Positions 12,005-18,730 of a stretch of 64,000 nt of DNA are shown piece by piece (position 1 is the stretch's first letter; each line of letters starts with the position of its first letter). The translations under genes were made by a program, and so were the position numbers. Source of the stretch: Aeromicrobium piscarium (GTDB taxonomy: Bacteria > Actinomycetota > Actinomycetes > Propionibacteriales > Nocardioidaceae); contig NZ_VLNT01000002.1 in assembly GCF_007421815.1 (NCBI RefSeq), positions 330,634 to 394,633 on the forward strand, in the 5' to 3' direction. The notes below the pieces were generated by a model. That model saw only the letters and a program-made list of their open reading frames with translations, searched no databases and was not told the DNA's origin.

Positions 12005-12550
12005 GTCGAGGACTCCGAGATCGCCAAGACGATGCTCGAGGAAGCGATGGGCGTGCACGGCATCCCAGAGGCGGTCCACGCCGACCGGGGCACCTCGATG
12101 ACATCGAAGCCCGTGGCGCAACTGCTCCTCGATCTCGGCGTCGACAGATCCCACTCCCGGCCACGGGTCAGCAACGACAACCCGTTCAGCGAAGCAGCAT
12201 TCAAGACCCTGAAGTACGCGCCGGCGTCCCCCGAGAGCTTCGGGTCCCTGGCAGATGCCAGGGCGTTCTGCGAGGCGTTCTTCAACTACTACCACCACGA
12301 GCACCGCCACTCCGGGATCGGGCTACACACCCCAGCATCGGTCCACCACGGCACCGCGACCGAGATCCGCACCCAACGCCAGGCAACGCTCGACGCCGCG
12401 CACACCACTCACCCCGAACGGTTCGGCAACCGCCGCCCCCTCGCGCCCAAGCTGCCCGAGGCGGCCTGGATCAACCAGCCATCACTGGAGGCCCTCATAC
12501 AGACGCGTAACGAGACGTGTCTCAGACTGCTTGACATCTTCCGACAGCCC
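12005..12550 (+). pseudogene. IS3-family transposase (OrfB) remnant, 5'-truncated
   Basis: The frame from 12005 encodes the C-terminal half of an IS3-family integrase: EDSEIAKTMLEEAMGVHG, the second catalytic Asp in VHADRGTSM, the catalytic Glu in NDNPFSEAAFKTLKY, and FNYYHHEHRHSGIGLHTPASV. The first catalytic Asp, the N-terminus and OrfA are missing, and the frame runs on past the expected end near 12510 into unrelated sequence up to 12703. Bases 12514-12550 (TGTCTCAGACTGCTTGACA...) may be the right end of the element. The remnant separates the copper operon from the next block. Confidence 0.8.
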
Positions 12551-12751
12551 GGTGGCGCTCAAGGTAGGTACCTGACATGCTTGAGGGGGCTCGGCCTGCT
12601 CTTCGAGGTCGACGTCGCCGAACTCGGCTACGGCATCGACTACTGGCCTGCCGGCGAGATCGGGCTCTACGCGCTCGACGGGCACACCTTCGTCCGGCTC
12701 TGACCGAAACCGCTTGGGCTGCTGTCGGCGCCACGTGTGAACATCGAGGGC

Positions 12752-13930: not shown

Positions 13931-13967
13931 CACATAGGAACAGGTTGCTGGCGACACGCCCTATGTG
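13931..13967. promoter_or_regulatory. Inverted repeat and leaderless-type promoter region before the TcmP gene
   Basis: CACATAGG at 13931-13938 pairs with CCTATGTG at 13960-13967, perfect eight-base arms around a 21-base spacer. Downstream, TAGGCT at 14002-14007 could be a -10 box exactly six bases before the ATG at 14014, which would give a leaderless mRNA. The repeat would lie around the -35 region and may be an operator. Confidence 0.4.
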
Positions 13968-14013
13968 TGCCGGTTATGCCGTGGACGAGGCACGAGATCG
14001 CTAGGCTGCGGCG

Positions 14014-15126
14014 ATGGGCTCGAAGAAGACCGACAGCATGGATACCATCTGGCCCATCTCGCCGCACACCGCGGCGAAGCACGACCTGCTTCGTAACTAC
14101 TTGGGCGCGTGGTTCGCGATCTTTGGTCAGTCATCGAACCACGACAAGGTGAACTTTGTTGACGGGTTTGCTGGCCCTGGGGTCTATGCGGCCGGCGAGG
14201 AGGGTTCGCCCATCGTCGCGCTGAGGGCGCTCCTTGAGCACAGCGCTGTCGACAAGTTCGCTGGCACCCAGTTCAACTTCCTTTTCAACGAGCACGACCC
14301 TCAGCGGCTCGACGCACTGAAAGCCATGGTCGAACGGCTTCGCTACGAGCTCGGAGAGTTCCCACCCAACGTCAACCTCCGCTTCGAGAATCGAAACTTT
14401 CACGACCTCGGCCAAGACATCCTCGGCTCGATGAAAGAAACCGAAGTGCTCGCGCCGACGTTCTTTTTCGTCGACCCGTTCGGCTACAAGGACGTGCCGC
14501 TCGAATTGATGCAGAAACTGCTCGCTTACAGAGCGTGCGAGATGCTGATCTACTTTGACTTCAACAGTGTGAACCGATTCGCCACGGCCGGTAACGTAGA
14601 CGAGCATTTCGAGGCTCTATTCGGGACCCACGCATTCACCGAGGCGCCGGCGTCGGGCCCGGCCCGCCACGAGTACTTGCGCGACTTGTACGAGCAGCAG
14701 CTCCGCGACGTTGGTCGGTTCACCTACGTACGGAGCTTCGCGATGGTCCGCGGCACCGGCCACGTTGGCTACTACCTCTTCTTCTGTACTCGCGACCTCC
14801 AGGCGTTCGACAAGATGAAGGCGCAGATGTGGAAGCTCGACCCATCAGGGTCGTACCGCTTCGAGGACCGGCTCGCCGACGTGCTCGTCCTCTTCGAGGC
14901 CGGCGGCTCGACCGAACCGCTGAAGGAGTGGCTCCTCGAGCGCTTCGCGGGCCAGACTGTTCCGATCCAAGTCGTGATCGACACCGTCATCGCTGAAACC
15001 CCGTACTACAGCGGCCAAGTGAAGACGAAGACCCTCGCGCCGATGAACCGCGCTGGAGTCATCGGCGGTGCTAACCAGAAGACTGTCGGCCAGTTTCCGG
15101 CCGGCACGTCGGTCGTGTTTCCCTAG
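14014..15126 (+). CDS. tcmP: Three-Cys-motif partner protein TcmP
   Basis: The 370-residue protein matches the TcmP family: KHDLLRNYLGAWFAIF near the N-terminus, then VNFVDGFAGPGVYAAGEEGSP, a methyltransferase-like glycine-rich strand, and later APTFFFVDPFGYKDVPLELM, with a DPF triad resembling a catalytic loop. The family name comes from its constant association with a gene for a protein with a three-cysteine motif, found here as the convergent neighbour. Their stop codons share the four bases CTAG at 15123-15126. There is no Shine-Dalgarno; a -10-like TAGGCT six bases upstream suggests a leaderless transcript. Biochemical role is unknown; the Rossmann-like features suggest nucleotide or SAM binding. 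Confidence 0.85.
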   Translation: MGSKKTDSMDTIWPISPHTAAKHDLLRNYLGAWFAIFGQSSNHDKVNFVDGFAGPGVYAAGEEGSPIVALRALLEHSAVDKFAGTQFNFLFNEHDPQRLDALKAMVERLRYELGEFPPNVNLRFENRNFHDLGQDILGSMKETEVLAPTFFFVDPFGYKDVPLELMQKLLAYRACEMLIYFDFNSVNRFATAGNVDEHFEALFGTHAFTEAPASGPARHEYLRDLYEQQLRDVGRFTYVRSFAMVRGTGHVGYYLFFCTRDLQAFDKMKAQMWKLDPSGSYRFEDRLADVLVLFEAGGSTEPLKEWLLERFAGQTVPIQVVIDTVIAETPYYSGQVKTKTLAPMNRAGVIGGANQKTVGQFPAGTSVVFP

Positions 15127-15875
15127 CCGACTGCGGCTAGGCGAGTCGGATACTGATCCCAGGTGCGGCCGTCGAGCTCACGACCATTGCTCTTCGGACG
15201 GATCCCACCCCATTGCTTGAAGAAAAACGCGATCTCTGCGTCGAGGCACTGGTCGCGGATCTCGCGGGCCCACTCGGCTTCCATCGGTCGAGCGTTCTTG
15301 CCCGACTCGCCGCCGACAATAACCCAATCGATGTCGTCGAGCGCGAGCTGAGGCAGTGGGGAGAGCAGCGGCTCGCAAGAGAGAAAGCGGGTCGCAGCCG
15401 GCGTCTCGCGAAGGTGGCCGATGCGGTCGACGACGTCCTCCGACTCGACAGAGACACCCATCCAGAGGTTGTCGGGCCAGCGCAGCTTGTCGGCGATTCG
15501 GTTCATCCGGTGTGCACGCTTAGTGAGGGCCTGATAGGTATGTTGCGGTGTCTGCTCCATGACGTCGAAGACGTCCTGGATAAACGAGACTGGGACCTTC
15601 GCGTGAAAGAGGTCTGACATCGAGTTTACGAATACGGTCTTCGGCGCGCGCCACTTCAGCGGCTGCGTGAGCGCGCGCGGGTGGATCGTCACCCCGAAAC
15701 CCGGACCGGACGTGCGCGGATCGCCGTCGTTCTGATATTTTTCCGACCCCATCGCCTGGAGGCGCTTCGCTAGTGCGAGGGCGTAGCAGTTGTCGCAGCC
15801 GGCCGCGATGCGGTCGCAGCCGGTGACCGGGTTCCAGGTGACCTCGGTCCATTCGATCGTGGAGTTGGTGGACAT
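15123..15875 (-). CDS. DUF5131 (phage Gp37/Gp68) three-Cys-motif protein
   Basis: This 250-residue protein has the family opening IEWTEVTWNPVTGC and three clustered cysteines, C20, C27 and C30 (C-x6-C-x2-C), which in this group are thought to hold a radical-SAM-like iron-sulfur cluster. Other family blocks are VFVNSMSDLFHAKVP, WMGVSVES, RFLSCEPLLSPLP and WVIVGGESG. The start at 15875 has GGTGAGGG upstream; the longer open frame is not supported. A perfect mycobacterial-type SOS box lies 22 bases upstream, so the gene is probably induced by DNA damage. It converges on tcmP with overlapping stops. Confidence 0.85.
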   Translation of the reverse strand: MSTNSTIEWTEVTWNPVTGCDRIAAGCDNCYALALAKRLQAMGSEKYQNDGDPRTSGPGFGVTIHPRALTQPLKWRAPKTVFVNSMSDLFHAKVPVSFIQDVFDVMEQTPQHTYQALTKRAHRMNRIADKLRWPDNLWMGVSVESEDVVDRIGHLRETPAATRFLSCEPLLSPLPQLALDDIDWVIVGGESGKNARPMEAEWAREIRDQCLDAEIAFFFKQWGGIRPKSNGRELDGRTWDQYPTRLAAVG

Positions 15876-15896
15876 ATCAGCCCTCACCTCAATTAT

Positions 15897-15912
15897 TCGA
15901 ACATGTGTTCGA
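15897..15912. promoter_or_regulatory. SOS (LexA) box upstream of the DUF5131 gene
   Basis: TCGAAC-ATGT-GTTCGA matches exactly the actinobacterial LexA consensus TCGAAC(N4)GTTCGA. It ends 22 bases before the DUF5131 start codon, where a bound LexA would block transcription. The rest of the gap up to 16110 shows nothing else I can assign; a short plus-strand stretch near 16020 has coding-like composition but no start and no recognisable family. Confidence 0.85.
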
Positions 15913-16110
15913 GTTGCCAGCTTACCCTGCCCTAGGGTATCGGAGTCAACAGGTCGCCTGGCCCTCGCGAGCGCTTCGCTAGTTTCGCGAGGCGCACGAC
16001 ACCTTCCGAGTCTGGGCATCACGACAACGGGGACGACCTGCTCGCCATCCTCAAGCAGTCGCTCGGCAAACCGCAGCCGAGCTCATCACGGCACGTTTCC
16101 CACGACAGAT

Positions 16111-17094
16111 TTAAGCGTTCCGGAGGAAACGAGCCCGCTCATGCATCGTCACCGGTGTTGAGTCGATCACCTGGTTGACCAGTCTGGTAAAGAAGCGCGC
16201 AGGGCCGAGTTCGTCCGGAACAAGATCCTGGCGCAGTGCGACTATCGGCAGCGTCCCGATGATCGCATCGATATCATCGACCGGAGGTTCGGCCTCAGTG
16301 TCGTCTACCTCGACCGCGTCCGATTCGATCGGAGCTGGCGGCTCCACGTCACCGCCGCCGTCGGCAGGTCCGGCACCGTCCCATTCGGGCACCACAAGAC
16401 AGCAGGCGTCGTAGGCATCCTCTTCCCGTCCGAGCTTCGCCAAGAGATCCACGATCCAGTCGAACTGCCGACGTTCCTCCGTGTAGGCGGTCGAACGCAT
16501 GGAGTAAAGAAAACCCATGGCAGCCATCGGATGGCGAAGCGCAAGATTCTTCGCGTCGCCGTACGACTCCTCCACACGGTTGGCGGCGTTCTTCCCAAAC
16601 GAGGAGTCCATCCGCTTGGTCGAGATCAGCAGTTCGGGGCCTGTTTGCCATCCGGAGAGGATGACATCAACCTGCTTCAGATAGTTCTTCCCCAGAATGT
16701 TCGCTGATGCTCCCGCCACTCTCCCGGGTCCACTTCCCTTCTGAAGGCGCGCCAGAAGATCGGCACGTGCAGCAGCCGGAGTGACGCCACGAATGAATTC
16801 GAGCACGTCTCGCGCCACAACGCGGGGAGGCTCGGCGCGCGGCCAGACAGCATCGGGGTCGAAGCCCGCACGTCGCAGTTCGTATGCCACCCATACGTCG
16901 AGGGCAAGCGCCGGAACCCCCGACCTGGTGGGCGCACCAAGGTGAAGGGGAACGCCGAGCAGGGCACGAAGAGTGTCGAGATCAGGGATGAACCGTCCAC
17001 CCTCCCACGGGTTGAGCTCGCGAAATGGCGCCGTCGCGACGACCGCGTCGAACAGCGGCCACGCCTCAGCTTTGGCCGTCGGCTTCTCGGCCAC
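16111..17094 (-). CDS. Type II restriction endonuclease (PD-(D/E)XK-like)
   Basis: The 327-residue protein contains KGSGPGRVAGASANILGKNY followed by KQVDVILSGWQTGPELLISTKRM. This is an Asp in VDVIL and then E-x-x-x-x-x-K in ELLISTK, consistent with a PD-(D/E)XK nuclease centre; next come SSFGKNAANRVEESYGDAKNL. The GTG start at 17094 comes two bases after the stop of the adjoining adenine methyltransferase gene, so the two form one operon and presumably one restriction-modification system. Family could be close to XamI-type enzymes, but the recognition sequence cannot be read from the protein. The C-terminal third is acidic. Confidence 0.72.
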   Translation of the reverse strand: MAEKPTAKAEAWPLFDAVVATAPFRELNPWEGGRFIPDLDTLRALLGVPLHLGAPTRSGVPALALDVWVAYELRRAGFDPDAVWPRAEPPRVVARDVLEFIRGVTPAAARADLLARLQKGSGPGRVAGASANILGKNYLKQVDVILSGWQTGPELLISTKRMDSSFGKNAANRVEESYGDAKNLALRHPMAAMGFLYSMRSTAYTEERRQFDWIVDLLAKLGREEDAYDACCLVVPEWDGAGPADGGGDVEPPAPIESDAVEVDDTEAEPPVDDIDAIIGTLPIVALRQDLVPDELGPARFFTRLVNQVIDSTPVTMHERARFLRNA

Positions 17095-17095
17095 T

Positions 17096-18730
17096 TCAGT
17101 TGCCCTTTCCGCGTGCCACTCGACGGGCCATGAGGCCAGCGTGCTCAGTCCGTACAGCCGCCAGATCCTTCTTCGACAGCCGTAATCCTTTGACCAGGAG
17201 AACGTCGTCGACGGCAGCCACCGCGTCAAGCAGGCGCCCCGCACGTAGTAGGCCAGAGACTGATGCCCGCAGTGCCGTCAATGGCTCTCGGTGGCGATTC
17301 ACGAGCGATGGCGACGGCATCGGCAGGGCATCGGCCTCGCGTGGCTCGACCTTCAACATCCCGCCACCGTATGCCCGACCGACTGTCTCAGCTCCCAGCA
17401 AAGTAACGGAGTTCAGGGAGGCGATTGGCAGAAGGTTGACTCCGTTCTCGCGGTGCTCCGCGTGCAGGTAGACGCCATGCACGGAGTTCAGGTGGTGACC
17501 CCGAACACGGTTCGTGGACAGGCGCGGAGTGTCAGCATTCATGTAGGTCAAGAACAGGTCAGCCGGGCGAAGGTACGGCACTCTCCACCACGGCGAGCGC
17601 ACGCGGCACTTGTAGGCCGTATGGACGTCAAGATCCTCTCCACTGGCGATATACGACCACGCTGCAGGAGAGGGGTCATCCGCAGGACGGAACAAGTACG
17701 TGGCTTGCCCCGCCTCGCCCAGCTGACGCAGCGCATCGTGGGTCAGTGAGAGTCCTCGTAGGTGCCGCGATCCGGGTGGGGATAACCGGATCACGTCGGT
17801 ATCCGCGAGGCCGAGTCCAGCGACTTTCCCTGGGCTCAAGGCGAAGAACCGGTTGTTACCGGTCACCATGCCGAGTGTTGTGTCGCCCCATGTACTCAAT
17901 GTCGTGAACTTAGGGCTGTCGAGGGCCTTGATGTACGCCGTAAGGCCATCGGTCGACATCAGTCCCGCCGACCAGCGACCACCTAGTGCTGGGGGTGTCC
18001 AGCGCCGCGCTTCAGCCAAGTCGGTGAGTCCGGCGGCATCACGAACCTGGTGCAAATTCATGTGACCGGTTCGCGCTTGACCTTGGGGGTCGTAGCCGTC
18101 GGCGAGGAGCAGTATGGCCTCGACTTCGACGCCTGGAAACACGCGCTCCTCGAAAAGGATCAGCGTGATGTCAGAGAAGTGCTCCAGCAGGAACCGGCGT
18201 ACCGGCGCCGCGTAGTTCACGGTCAAGAGTTCTGCAGGGAGCACGAGCCCGAGGCGCCCCCCGTCGCGCAAGTGGAGGGCAGAATGGACGGTGAACGCGG
18301 CCCAGGAAGACGCAAGGCTCGTGAGGTTGACGCCGGCTCGAAGCGCAGCCTCGCGCGACTTTGCCCTAGCCTCGCCCGTCCAGCCCTGATACCGGACGTA
18401 CGGCGGATTACCGACGACCGCGTCGTACGATCCGAACTCCTCGTGGAAGAAGAAGTCGCCAGCGTGAATCGATGCGTTGATCCCTTCGAGGTGCAACAAC
18501 CGTTCAGCCTCGACTGCTGAGGGTCCGTGTAGTTCGACCCCTACGAGCGGTCCAGCGTGGTTGCCGTCTCGGCCAGCCTCGTGCAGAAAGACCGCCTCAC
18601 CGCAGGACGGTTCGAGAATCGCATCGGACGCATCGCGGATCGCCCATGAATTAATGAAGCGGGCGACGGCTGGGGGTGTGAAGAACGCTCCTCTAGCTTT
18701 GCGCAGATCAGAAGAGTCGCCGGGAAGCAT
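17096..18730 (-). CDS. N6-adenine DNA methyltransferase (type II R-M system)
   Basis: The 544-residue enzyme has the order of a gamma-class (TaqI/Eco57I-like) amino-methyltransferase: FFTPPAVARFI, the SAM-binding motif ILEPSCGEAVFL at about residues 40-52, then the catalytic motif VVGNPPYVRYQ near residue 107. The large C-terminal part (GMVTGNNRFFAL onward) is the target recognition region. It should methylate adenine in the site cut by the neighbouring nuclease. The ATG at 18730 follows a small possible gene ending 15 bases upstream. Length fits a type II enzyme without fused nuclease. Confidence 0.88.
   Translation of the reverse strand: MLPGDSSDLRKARGAFFTPPAVARFINSWAIRDASDAILEPSCGEAVFLHEAGRDGNHAGPLVGVELHGPSAVEAERLLHLEGINASIHAGDFFFHEEFGSYDAVVGNPPYVRYQGWTGEARAKSREAALRAGVNLTSLASSWAAFTVHSALHLRDGGRLGLVLPAELLTVNYAAPVRRFLLEHFSDITLILFEERVFPGVEVEAILLLADGYDPQGQARTGHMNLHQVRDAAGLTDLAEARRWTPPALGGRWSAGLMSTDGLTAYIKALDSPKFTTLSTWGDTTLGMVTGNNRFFALSPGKVAGLGLADTDVIRLSPPGSRHLRGLSLTHDALRQLGEAGQATYLFRPADDPSPAAWSYIASGEDLDVHTAYKCRVRSPWWRVPYLRPADLFLTYMNADTPRLSTNRVRGHHLNSVHGVYLHAEHRENGVNLLPIASLNSVTLLGAETVGRAYGGGMLKVEPREADALPMPSPSLVNRHREPLTALRASVSGLLRAGRLLDAVAAVDDVLLVKGLRLSKKDLAAVRTEHAGLMARRVARGKGN

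What the first reader, a model, noticed from the sequence alone, without database searches (positions are those of the whole stretch)
14014..15912. SOS-box-controlled three-Cys protein convergent with TcmP, sharing stop-codon bases
A DUF5131 three-Cys protein with a perfect TCGAAC(N4)GTTCGA box 22 bases upstream faces a TcmP gene, and the two stops overlap in CTAG. The families are known to travel together, but their function is not established. Control by LexA suggests a DNA-damage-linked role, possibly phage defence or DNA or RNA modification. The tcmP gene seems to have its own leaderless promoter with an eight-base inverted repeat.
Basis: partly seen in the sequence, partly recalled or inferred. 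Interest (0 to 1): 0.75.

Follow-up and report, generated by a model that had tools for sequence, protein, structure and literature searches.

The report
DNA-damage-controlled mobile enzyme pair
This is a mobile pair of genes for two enzyme-like proteins, already listed as a possible anti-phage system, whose conserved radical-SAM-like gene appears in some actinobacteria to have been placed under the cell's DNA-damage switch; what the pair does is not yet known.

Summary
A DUF5131 gene (15123-15875, minus) has a perfect LexA/SOS box 21 nt before its ATG and faces tcmP (14014-15126, plus); their stops share CTAG. LexA control is well supported: the genome's recA, lexA and imuA' carry such boxes, and in 131 non-redundant DUF5131 loci a box with at most 1 mismatch lies within 120 nt upstream in 12 of 62 loci with convergent TcmP (own locus included), 0 of 40 without TcmP and 0 of 1663 control ORF starts. 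In a second sample it recurs in 5 of 14 unseen convergent loci. It is not universal: most loci lack it, and some carry other operators. The pair itself is not new (PADLOC PDC-M30/PDC-M41). DUF5131 is related to a radical-SAM family but with Cys spacing CX6CX2C. TcmP looks methyltransferase-like on weak evidence. DUF5131 is conserved (median 70% identity) while its TcmP partners are divergent (21%). The 19 of 394 genomes with TcmP all have DUF5131. Best reading: a mobile defence candidate whose conserved effector is repressed, here by LexA, with an exchangeable partner. Function is inferred; no structure could be computed.

The parts
15123..15875 (-). DUF5131 (Gp37/Gp68) radical-SAM-like protein, 250 aa, CX6CX2C (C20, C27, C30)
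   Evidence: PF07505 2e-103; PADLOC PDC-M30B/M41B; three Cys in 48 of 48 aligned rows
14014..15126 (+). tcmP, 370 aa, methyltransferase-like with C-terminal winged-helix-like segment
   Evidence: TIGR04474 6.9e-51; PDC-M30A 1.9e-53; GMT-wHTH 23.5 bits, below the 27-bit cut-off
15123..15126 (.). CTAG shared by the two stop codons
   Evidence: 4-nt overlap in 26 of 71 convergent loci, own locus included
15897..15912 (.). LexA/SOS box TCGAACATGTGTTCGA, 12 of 12 fixed positions
   Evidence: recurrence
15919..15924 (-). possible -10 hexamer TAAGCT just upstream of the box (possible -35 TTGACT at 15944-15949, spacing 19); an alternative -35/-10 pair (CTGGCA, 17 nt, AATAAT) straddles the box
   Evidence: sequence; alternative from the consensus scan; untested
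15881..15890 (-). GAGGTGAGGG, ribosome-binding-like stretch before the DUF5131 ATG
   Evidence: sequence
14002..14007 (+). TAGGCT, possible -10 hexamer of a leaderless tcmP transcript
   Evidence: sequence; untested
13931..13967 (+). 8-nt perfect inverted repeat (arms 13931-13938, 13960-13967) upstream of tcmP
   Evidence: no test of significance or conservation made
16111..18730 (-). neighbouring type II-like modification gene (17096-18730, M.Eco57I-type) and a 377-aa ORF (16111-17244) with a weak REase_II match (E=0.018); context, not part of the pair

Best explanation
A mobile two-protein system, most likely anti-phage, of the kind PADLOC lists as PDC-M30/PDC-M41. DUF5131 is a conserved radical-SAM-like effector kept off by a repressor: LexA here and in a recurrent subset of actinobacteria, apparently other HTH regulators in some other loci. 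TcmP is an exchangeable, methyltransferase-like partner, probably made without LexA control, that gives specificity or licence. DNA damage (phage attack, prophage induction, restriction cuts) would release LexA, produce DUF5131, and with TcmP chemically alter a nucleic acid and stop the invader. Shown: anatomy, recurrence of the box, layout, partner divergence, occurrence of TcmP only in genomes with DUF5131 (19 of 19). Inferred: enzymatic activities, substrate, defence outcome, and that TcmP is constitutive.
For: LexA: own genome has lexA and recA, each with a 1-mismatch box upstream, and perfect boxes before imuA' (11 nt) and a DUF222-HNH gene (12 nt). Box with at most 1 mismatch within 120 nt of the DUF5131 start: 12 of 62 convergent loci, own locus included (11 of 61 without it); 0 of 21 tandem-downstream; 0 of 8 other paired; 0 of 40 without TcmP; shuffle mean 0.035 for the convergent set; 0 of 1663 control ORFs (mechanical ORFs, many not genes); 0 of 82 tcmP upstream regions. 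Second sample: 5 of 14 unseen convergent loci, 0 of 6 without TcmP. Box state needs 10 changes on a 91-row tree, at least 3 forced by starred branches. Alternative operators: TTACG-type 6 of 91, GTGATAAATT-type 6 of 91, CGCACATATGTGCG 3 of 91; controls 0 of 1614 each; small HTH genes next to DUF5131 in 7 loci (6 divergent, 1 not) and 3 loci. DUF5131 median identity 70.3% against TcmP 21.1% over 85 non-redundant pairs. The 19 TcmP genomes are all among the 30 DUF5131 genomes of 394. Radical-SAM kinship: hhalign E=1.2e-29. Defence context: restriction or modification genes near the pair in several loci; pair in lysogeny cassettes of four Gordonia phages.
Against: No activity, substrate or phage protection is shown by anything here. 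50 of 62 convergent loci lack a box with at most 1 mismatch. The link of box to convergent layout is not absolute: at 113-116 nt two tandem-downstream loci (L134, L071) have one, and L091, with no TcmP found on a contig that ends just after DUF5131, has one at 145 nt. Four Gordonia phage loci lack it, and no LexA-type pattern tested was found in four alphaproteobacterial and two Pseudomonas plasmid loci. SOS control also fits repair. TcmP lacks the DPPY motif of adenine-N6 methyltransferases. The Cys spacing is not the canonical CX3CX2C. Low TcmP identity may partly reflect fast evolution and alignment limits. Box statistics are not corrected for relatedness. The TTACG, GTGATAAATT and CGCACATATGTGCG patterns were chosen after looking at the sequences.
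Confidence: 0.48

Rival explanations
1. DNA (or RNA) repair: DUF5131 is a radical-SAM lesion-reversal enzyme, loosely like spore photoproduct lyase, induced with the other SOS genes; TcmP assists or recognises lesions.
For: SOS box shared with recA, lexA, imuA'; radical-SAM kinship; a LexA-bound, mitomycin-induced radical-SAM gene is tabulated for Streptomyces venezuelae (PMC9380542, passage), though its family was not checked.
Against: Patchy and mobile (30 of 394 genomes of the class; 1 of 37 of the genus sample, the own genome), DUF5131 also on phages and plasmids; partner very divergent; box absent in most loci. Profile link to the SPL-like pair B protein is weak (14.7% probability).
Confidence: 0.2
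2. Addiction or toxin-antitoxin-like module: TcmP is harmful and DUF5131 undoes or prevents its modification.
For: TcmP was not found in a genome without DUF5131 (0 of 19), while DUF5131 occurs without a TIGR04474 match in 11 of 30 genomes; tail-to-tail layout allows antisense coupling.
Against: An antidote that is off until DNA damage while the toxin promoter lacks a LexA site would poison growing cells; tandem layouts are also common (25 downstream and 7 upstream of 151 loci). One genome (G145) has an extra TcmP copy 3.3 Mb from the nearest DUF5131 match on that contig.
Confidence: 0.15
3. Self-modification or anti-restriction: the pair modifies the mobile element's own nucleic acid so that host restriction does not cut it.
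For: DUF5131 occurs on phages and plasmids; depositors call the TcmP of two of the four phages read a methyltransferase; damage-linked expression would suit element induction.
Against: In the four Gordonia phages TcmP is directly beside the immunity repressor gene on the same strand, in what looks like the lysogeny cassette; in the window the pair sits on a bacterial contig beside a modification gene.
Confidence: 0.12

Closest known systems
PADLOC candidates PDC-M30 and PDC-M41
   Same: Both window proteins hit the A and B models (M30A 1.9e-53, M41A 6.3e-8, M30B 1.3e-109, M41B 8.9e-113); one paper predicted PDC-M30 in 32 of 100 P. aeruginosa strains, 68.8% of them phage-resistant by its measure (PMC10855318, passages)
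   Different: No LexA control is mentioned in the passages seen; the two P. aeruginosa plasmid pairs read here are tandem behind an integrase gene, not convergent
Radical SAM mobile pair protein A (TIGR04471)
   Same: Homologous over most of the length (hhalign E 1.2e-29, 183 columns); 48 of 48 DUF5131 rows match TIGR04471 at E up to 0.5, best 4.1e-31
   Different: Below the equivalog cut-off (72 of 355 bits); Cys spacing CX6CX2C instead of CX3CX2C; partner is TcmP, not pair B
RlmJ, 23S rRNA m6A2030 methyltransferase
   Same: E. coli RlmJ is a weak, below-cut-off match to the TcmP model (E=0.0012, 18.8 of 53 bits); collinear motifs DGFAGPG/DTHAGAG, EGSP/PGSP, NEHDP/TELHP, DPFG/DPPY (last one shifted by a column)
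   Different: No PF04378 match for TcmP; DPPY replaced by D-[PSGT]-[FCWY]-[GR]; hhalign only 14.3% over 24 columns; in the profile search of solved structures isocitrate dehydrogenase (E 0.0019) ranks above RlmJ (E 0.45)
LexA-controlled genes of actinobacteria (S. venezuelae radical-SAM gene vnz_31145, PMC9380542 passage; recA and imuA' here)
   Same: Operator of the same type near the start codon
   Different: Not paired with TcmP as far as the passage shows; vnz_31145's family was not checked

Membership tests
TcmP (TIGR04474) | score above the curated cut-off | tested here: met
   173.7 bits, cut-off 53
DUF5131 (PF07505) | score above the gathering cut-off, full length | tested here: met
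   345.6 bits, cut-off 28.9, profile 1-243 of 243
PADLOC PDC-M30 / PDC-M41 | both components adjacent | tested here: met
   genes overlap by 4 nt. PADLOC's own synteny rule was not run
PADLOC PDC-M30 / PDC-M41 | protects against phage | not testable with these tools
   candidate only; no experiment found
Radical SAM superfamily | homology to a family curated as radical SAM | tested here: met
   unrelated control 0.5%
Radical SAM superfamily | canonical CX3CX2C cluster motif (recalled) | tested here: not met
   CX6CX2C in 48 of 48
Radical SAM superfamily | [4Fe-4S] cluster and SAM cleavage | not testable with these tools
   -
TIGR04471 rSAM_mob_pairA | score above the equivalog cut-off | tested here: not met
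   72 of 355 bits
RlmJ (PF04378) | family match and DPPY motif | tested here: not met
   PF04378 not among the families listed for 46 TcmP rows at E up to 0.5; motif D-[PSGT]-[FCWY]-[GR]
Class I SAM methyltransferase | fold | tested here: inconclusive
   only weak sequence evidence; structure jobs failed
LexA regulon | operator near the start, LexA and RecA present | tested here: met
LexA regulon | conserved operator in homologues | tested here: met
   recurrent in a subset; absent in most loci
LexA regulon | induction by DNA damage | not testable with these tools
   -

The most novel reading that the evidence does not exclude
A two-part defence system with a fixed radical-SAM effector and a swappable methyltransferase-like partner, in which evolution has repeatedly wired the effector to whatever damage or repressor signal is at hand (LexA several times, dedicated HTH repressors elsewhere), so that nucleic-acid modification by radical chemistry becomes a damage-triggered antiviral weapon of bacteria and prophages.
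Probability: 0.2. Interest if true: 0.85.

Novelty: new variant of a known kind. Interest (0 to 1): 0.58.

Why it matters
The two families occur on phages, plasmids and islands, yet their function is open; NCBI and PADLOC only name them. The recurrent LexA box tells which gene of the pair is switched, when it should be switched on, and in which organisms, so the first experiment (induce, then challenge) becomes obvious. The contrast between a conserved DUF5131 and divergent TcmP partners, and the absence of TcmP from genomes without DUF5131 (0 of 19), separates a probable effector from a probable specificity part. I saw no statement of LexA control of this pair in the results, with one open case: PMC5057432 (passages) reports Rv2734 and Rv2735c, with recA and recX, as one cluster responding to mitomycin C and lists putative SOS-box genes in an additional file that I did not see; the cited SOS-box paper of 2002 is not held. 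Most subscription papers are not in that library.

Tried and rejected
Considered and set aside: chance origin of the box; the shared stop codon as a special mechanism (a 4-nt overlap is the commonest spacing among convergent loci, 26 of 71); LexA control of tcmP (0 of 82 upstream regions with at most 1 mismatch; tcmP starts were chosen by rule and some are off by tens of bases); a PafBC-type TTGTC[AG]GTG pattern (recalled) upstream of DUF5131 (no match among the 91 paired non-redundant loci; a looser pattern matched 19 loci and was not tested against controls); alpha- and gamma-proteobacterial LexA patterns (recalled) in six plasmid loci (none); recA/recX beside the pair in the loci held at that point (no tblastn match); GC deviation of the region (61-67% in 1-kb steps from 5 to 25 kb, no clear island edge); an empty site in the genus (the flanking DUF4192 gene has no close, positionally useful counterpart in the 15 relatives searched, so not settled).

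Mycobacterium tuberculosis lead: Rv2734 and Rv2735c form a cluster of differentially expressed genes with recX and recA under mitomycin C (PMC5057432, passages; direction not stated in the passage); [quoted passage not shown] BCG_2748c carries a three-Cys-motif partner domain (PMC7387457, passage). That BCG_2748c is Rv2735c and that Rv2734 is a DUF5131 protein is my recollection, not tested. Passages of PMC9846648, PMC5393005 and PMC10609372 gave no function; PMC8151990 holds neither name.

Structure and fold comparison led nowhere because the predictor was unavailable; profile searches of solved structures gave nothing usable for DUF5131 and, for TcmP, short weak hits, isocitrate dehydrogenase ahead of RlmJ.
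Full report
1. The observation. The sequence shows DUF5131 at 15123-15875 on the minus strand and tcmP at 14014-15126 on the plus strand, with both stops inside CTAG at 15123-15126. A perfect TCGAAC-N4-GTTCGA box lies at 15897-15912, 21 nt before the DUF5131 ATG. A longer ORF from a GTG at 16022 exists; I take the ATG because similarity to homologues begins there, which is an inference. Families: PF07505 2e-103, TIGR04474 6.9e-51.

2. Is the box a LexA box in this organism? The genome (G000, unnamed, 3.76 Mb) has one lexA-type and one recA match. The pattern occurs 31 times with up to 1 mismatch, against 8 for the same pattern read backwards; 9 of the 31 are perfect, the window's own among them. 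lexA and recA each have a 1-mismatch box upstream. A perfect box lies 11 nt before an ORF identified as imuA' (NF058630, 2.5e-40) and another 12 nt before a DUF222-HNH gene. For the other perfect sites I did not establish a controlled gene.

3. Is the box conserved? I gathered 151 loci: 80 from named genomes (the best 80 of 260 relatives found, so biased to close relatives), 34 from viral contigs and 37 from genome searches (L001 is the window's own locus). A TcmP was found by an iterated profile in 104 of 151: 71 convergent, 25 tandem downstream, 7 tandem upstream, 1 divergent, 47 without. After dropping loci with short upstream sequence or fragmentary DUF5131 (143 left) and loci identical in their last 80 nt, 131 remained. 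Boxes within 120 nt of the start, at 0 / up to 1 / up to 2 mismatches: convergent 8/12/17 of 62; tandem downstream 0/0/2 of 21; other paired 0/0/0 of 8; no TcmP 0/0/0 of 40. Shuffle means for the convergent set were 0, 0.035 and 0.35. Control ORFs of at least 150 aa in the same loci (mechanical, many not genes): 0/0/22 of 1663. Upstream of tcmP: 0/0/1 of 82. The window's own locus is one of the 62; without it 7 of 61 are perfect and 11 of 61 have at most 1 mismatch. With a wider window the split is less clean: at 150 nt, 15 of 91 paired loci have at most 1 mismatch against 0 of 1614 controls, two of them tandem (L071, L134); at 250 nt one locus without a detected TcmP (L091, contig ends just after the gene, upstream identical to L034) also has one.

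4. Second sample. With the same criteria fixed beforehand I searched 293 genomes of the family of the Nocardioides locus L023; 25 had DUF5131. The family was chosen because box-bearing loci were known in it, so the rate there is not a rate for actinobacteria; the loci counted were unseen in the first set (one, L223, appears by its upstream site to be the plasmid locus L174 read, without a box). Of 30 loci, 7 had been seen before and 3 were fragments and were left out (one fragment, L247, has a perfect box). Among the 20 left, 5 of 14 convergent loci have a box with at most 1 mismatch (4 perfect), 14-25 nt before the start; 0 of 6 loci without TcmP do. On a 91-row DUF5131 tree (quick method, 42 of 88 inner branches weak) the box needs 10 changes; strongly supported branches force at least 3. 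It is clustered little more than shuffled labels (51 of 500 shuffles as low). So the wiring to LexA has probably come and gone several times.

5. Where the box is missing. Four Gordonia phages with integrase and immunity-repressor genes (Bosnia, Easley, Fairfaxidum, BaxterFox; four genera) carry the pair; TcmP, confirmed by profile in all four, lies directly beside the immunity repressor gene on the same strand; none has the box. Of four actinobacterial plasmid loci, one has a perfect box (L183), one a 2-mismatch palindrome (L182), two none. Four alphaproteobacterial and two Pseudomonas plasmid loci show no LexA pattern that I tested. Other operators recur: TTACG-type in 6 of 91, GTGATAAATT-type in 6 of 91 and CGCACATATGTGCG in 3 of 91 paired loci, each 0 of 1614 in controls; GTGAC repeats in 5 of 91 against 6 of 1614. 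These patterns were chosen after looking at the sequences. A small gene family whose L037 member is MarR-like (23.6 bits, below the 27-bit cut-off) lies next to DUF5131 in 7 loci (6 divergent), the 6 loci with TTACG repeats among them; a Cro/C1-type HTH family (L066 member, above cut-off) lies divergent in 3 of the 6 loci with the GTGATAAATT pattern. 57 of 91 paired loci carry none of these patterns. That these HTH proteins bind these patterns is inference.

6. The proteins. DUF5131: hhalign against radical SAM mobile pair protein A gives E=1.2e-29 and 99.8% over 183 columns, with its CX3CX2C aligned to the DUF5131 CX6CX2C; an unrelated E. coli protein gives 0.5%, the pair B protein 14.7%. All 48 aligned DUF5131 proteins match TIGR04471 at E up to 0.5 and keep the three Cys. 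TcmP: no solved relative by single-sequence search; by profile, isocitrate dehydrogenase over about 55 residues (E 0.0019) and then, lower, RlmJ (E 0.45). E. coli RlmJ matches the TcmP model at E=0.0012, below cut-off, with collinear motifs but without DPPY in TcmP (D-[PSGT]-[FCWY]-[GR] in 46 rows); pairwise hhalign with RlmJ is weak (14.3%, 24 columns), though above two unrelated or other E. coli proteins (0.4% and 0.2%). 27 of 46 TcmP rows match GMT-wHTH at E up to 0.5; the window protein is below the cut-off.

7. Conserved and divergent halves. Over 85 non-redundant pairs, DUF5131 has median pairwise identity 70.3% (5-95%: 60.5-80.6) and TcmP 21.1% (16.4-45.9); even for pairs with DUF5131 80-90% identical, median TcmP identity is 21.4%. 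The loci were found by DUF5131 similarity, which favours its conservation, and TcmP values come from one alignment of very divergent proteins. In 394 genomes of the class, DUF5131 occurs in 30 and TcmP in 19, the 19 all among the 30 (hypergeometric P=5e-25, uncorrected for relatedness). In 18 of the 19 a DUF5131 model match lies within 410 nt of a TcmP model match (in G145 a below-cut-off piece), in one 2.9 kb away; two genomes hold an additional TcmP match, one 3.3 Mb from DUF5131 on its contig and one, below cut-off, on a contig without it.

8. Context. In the window the DUF5131 gene lies downstream, on the same strand, of a type II-like modification gene and an ORF with a weak REase match. 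Elsewhere the pair adjoins EcoRI-type methylase plus DUF262/GmrSD-HNH genes (families checked for L018 only), a McrC-family gene with an AAA ATPase, or a restriction endonuclease; integrase-like genes cluster in 13 of 91 paired loci (identified by eye, not by a family search). The same convergent layout with a 4-nt overlap is annotated on Agrobacterium and Rhizobium plasmids.

9. Reading. The regulated gene is DUF5131, and in part of the loci it carries a recognisable repressor-type operator; TcmP shows no LexA site. TcmP was found only in genomes with DUF5131, not the reverse. The DUF5131 sequence is constant and the partner changes. That pattern fits a constant, costly effector with an exchangeable specificity or licensing part, i.e. 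a defence system, better than a housekeeping repair gene or an addiction module; this last step is inference. LexA control here I hold at about 0.9; the defence reading as a whole at about 0.48.

10. Known or new. The pair is known to curators (NCBIfam names, PADLOC PDC-M30/M41). Full-text search for DUF5131, PF07505, TIGR04474, Gp37Gp68 returned one paper, of which I saw only the search listing; 'three-Cys-motif' returned three papers, of which I saw single passages. None of these addresses LexA control or function of the pair in what I saw. The nearest to a precedent is the mitomycin-responsive Rv2734/Rv2735c cluster (PMC5057432, passages), whose identity with this pair I did not test. I therefore rate it a new variant of a known kind.

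Noticed in passing
L172 (Gordonia phage BaxterFox) 6001-6762: The deposited record annotates small genes on the opposite strand where the DUF5131 reading frame matches; the DUF5131 gene itself is not annotated.
   Followed up: no
L169-L172: TcmP sits next to the immunity repressor gene in phages of four genera, DUF5131 facing it, beside a metallo-protease or peptidase gene and near an integrase.
   Followed up: partly
L035, L037, L039, L048, L054, L055, L064; L066, L068, L133: Two families of small HTH-type genes next to DUF5131, all but L039 with their own repeated motif in the DUF5131 upstream region.
   Followed up: partly
viral loci, e.g. L102-L121: Longer, more divergent DUF5131 proteins of viral contigs, mostly 260-460 aa, occur without a detected TcmP; the window DUF5131 protein matches PHROG 2045, function unknown.
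   Followed up: no
window 16111-18730: Type II-like modification gene and a possible restriction gene on the DUF5131 strand.
   Followed up: no
G145:C1 6889947-6893037: DUF5131 is followed by TcmP matches in separated pieces, one with an in-frame TGA; the same contig has a further TcmP match 3.3 Mb away. Described only.
   Followed up: no
window 12032-12703: IS3-type integrase-core fragment left of the pair.
   Followed up: no
G000 C23, locus L159 266-1489: DUF222-HNH endonuclease gene with a perfect SOS box 12 nt upstream.
   Followed up: no
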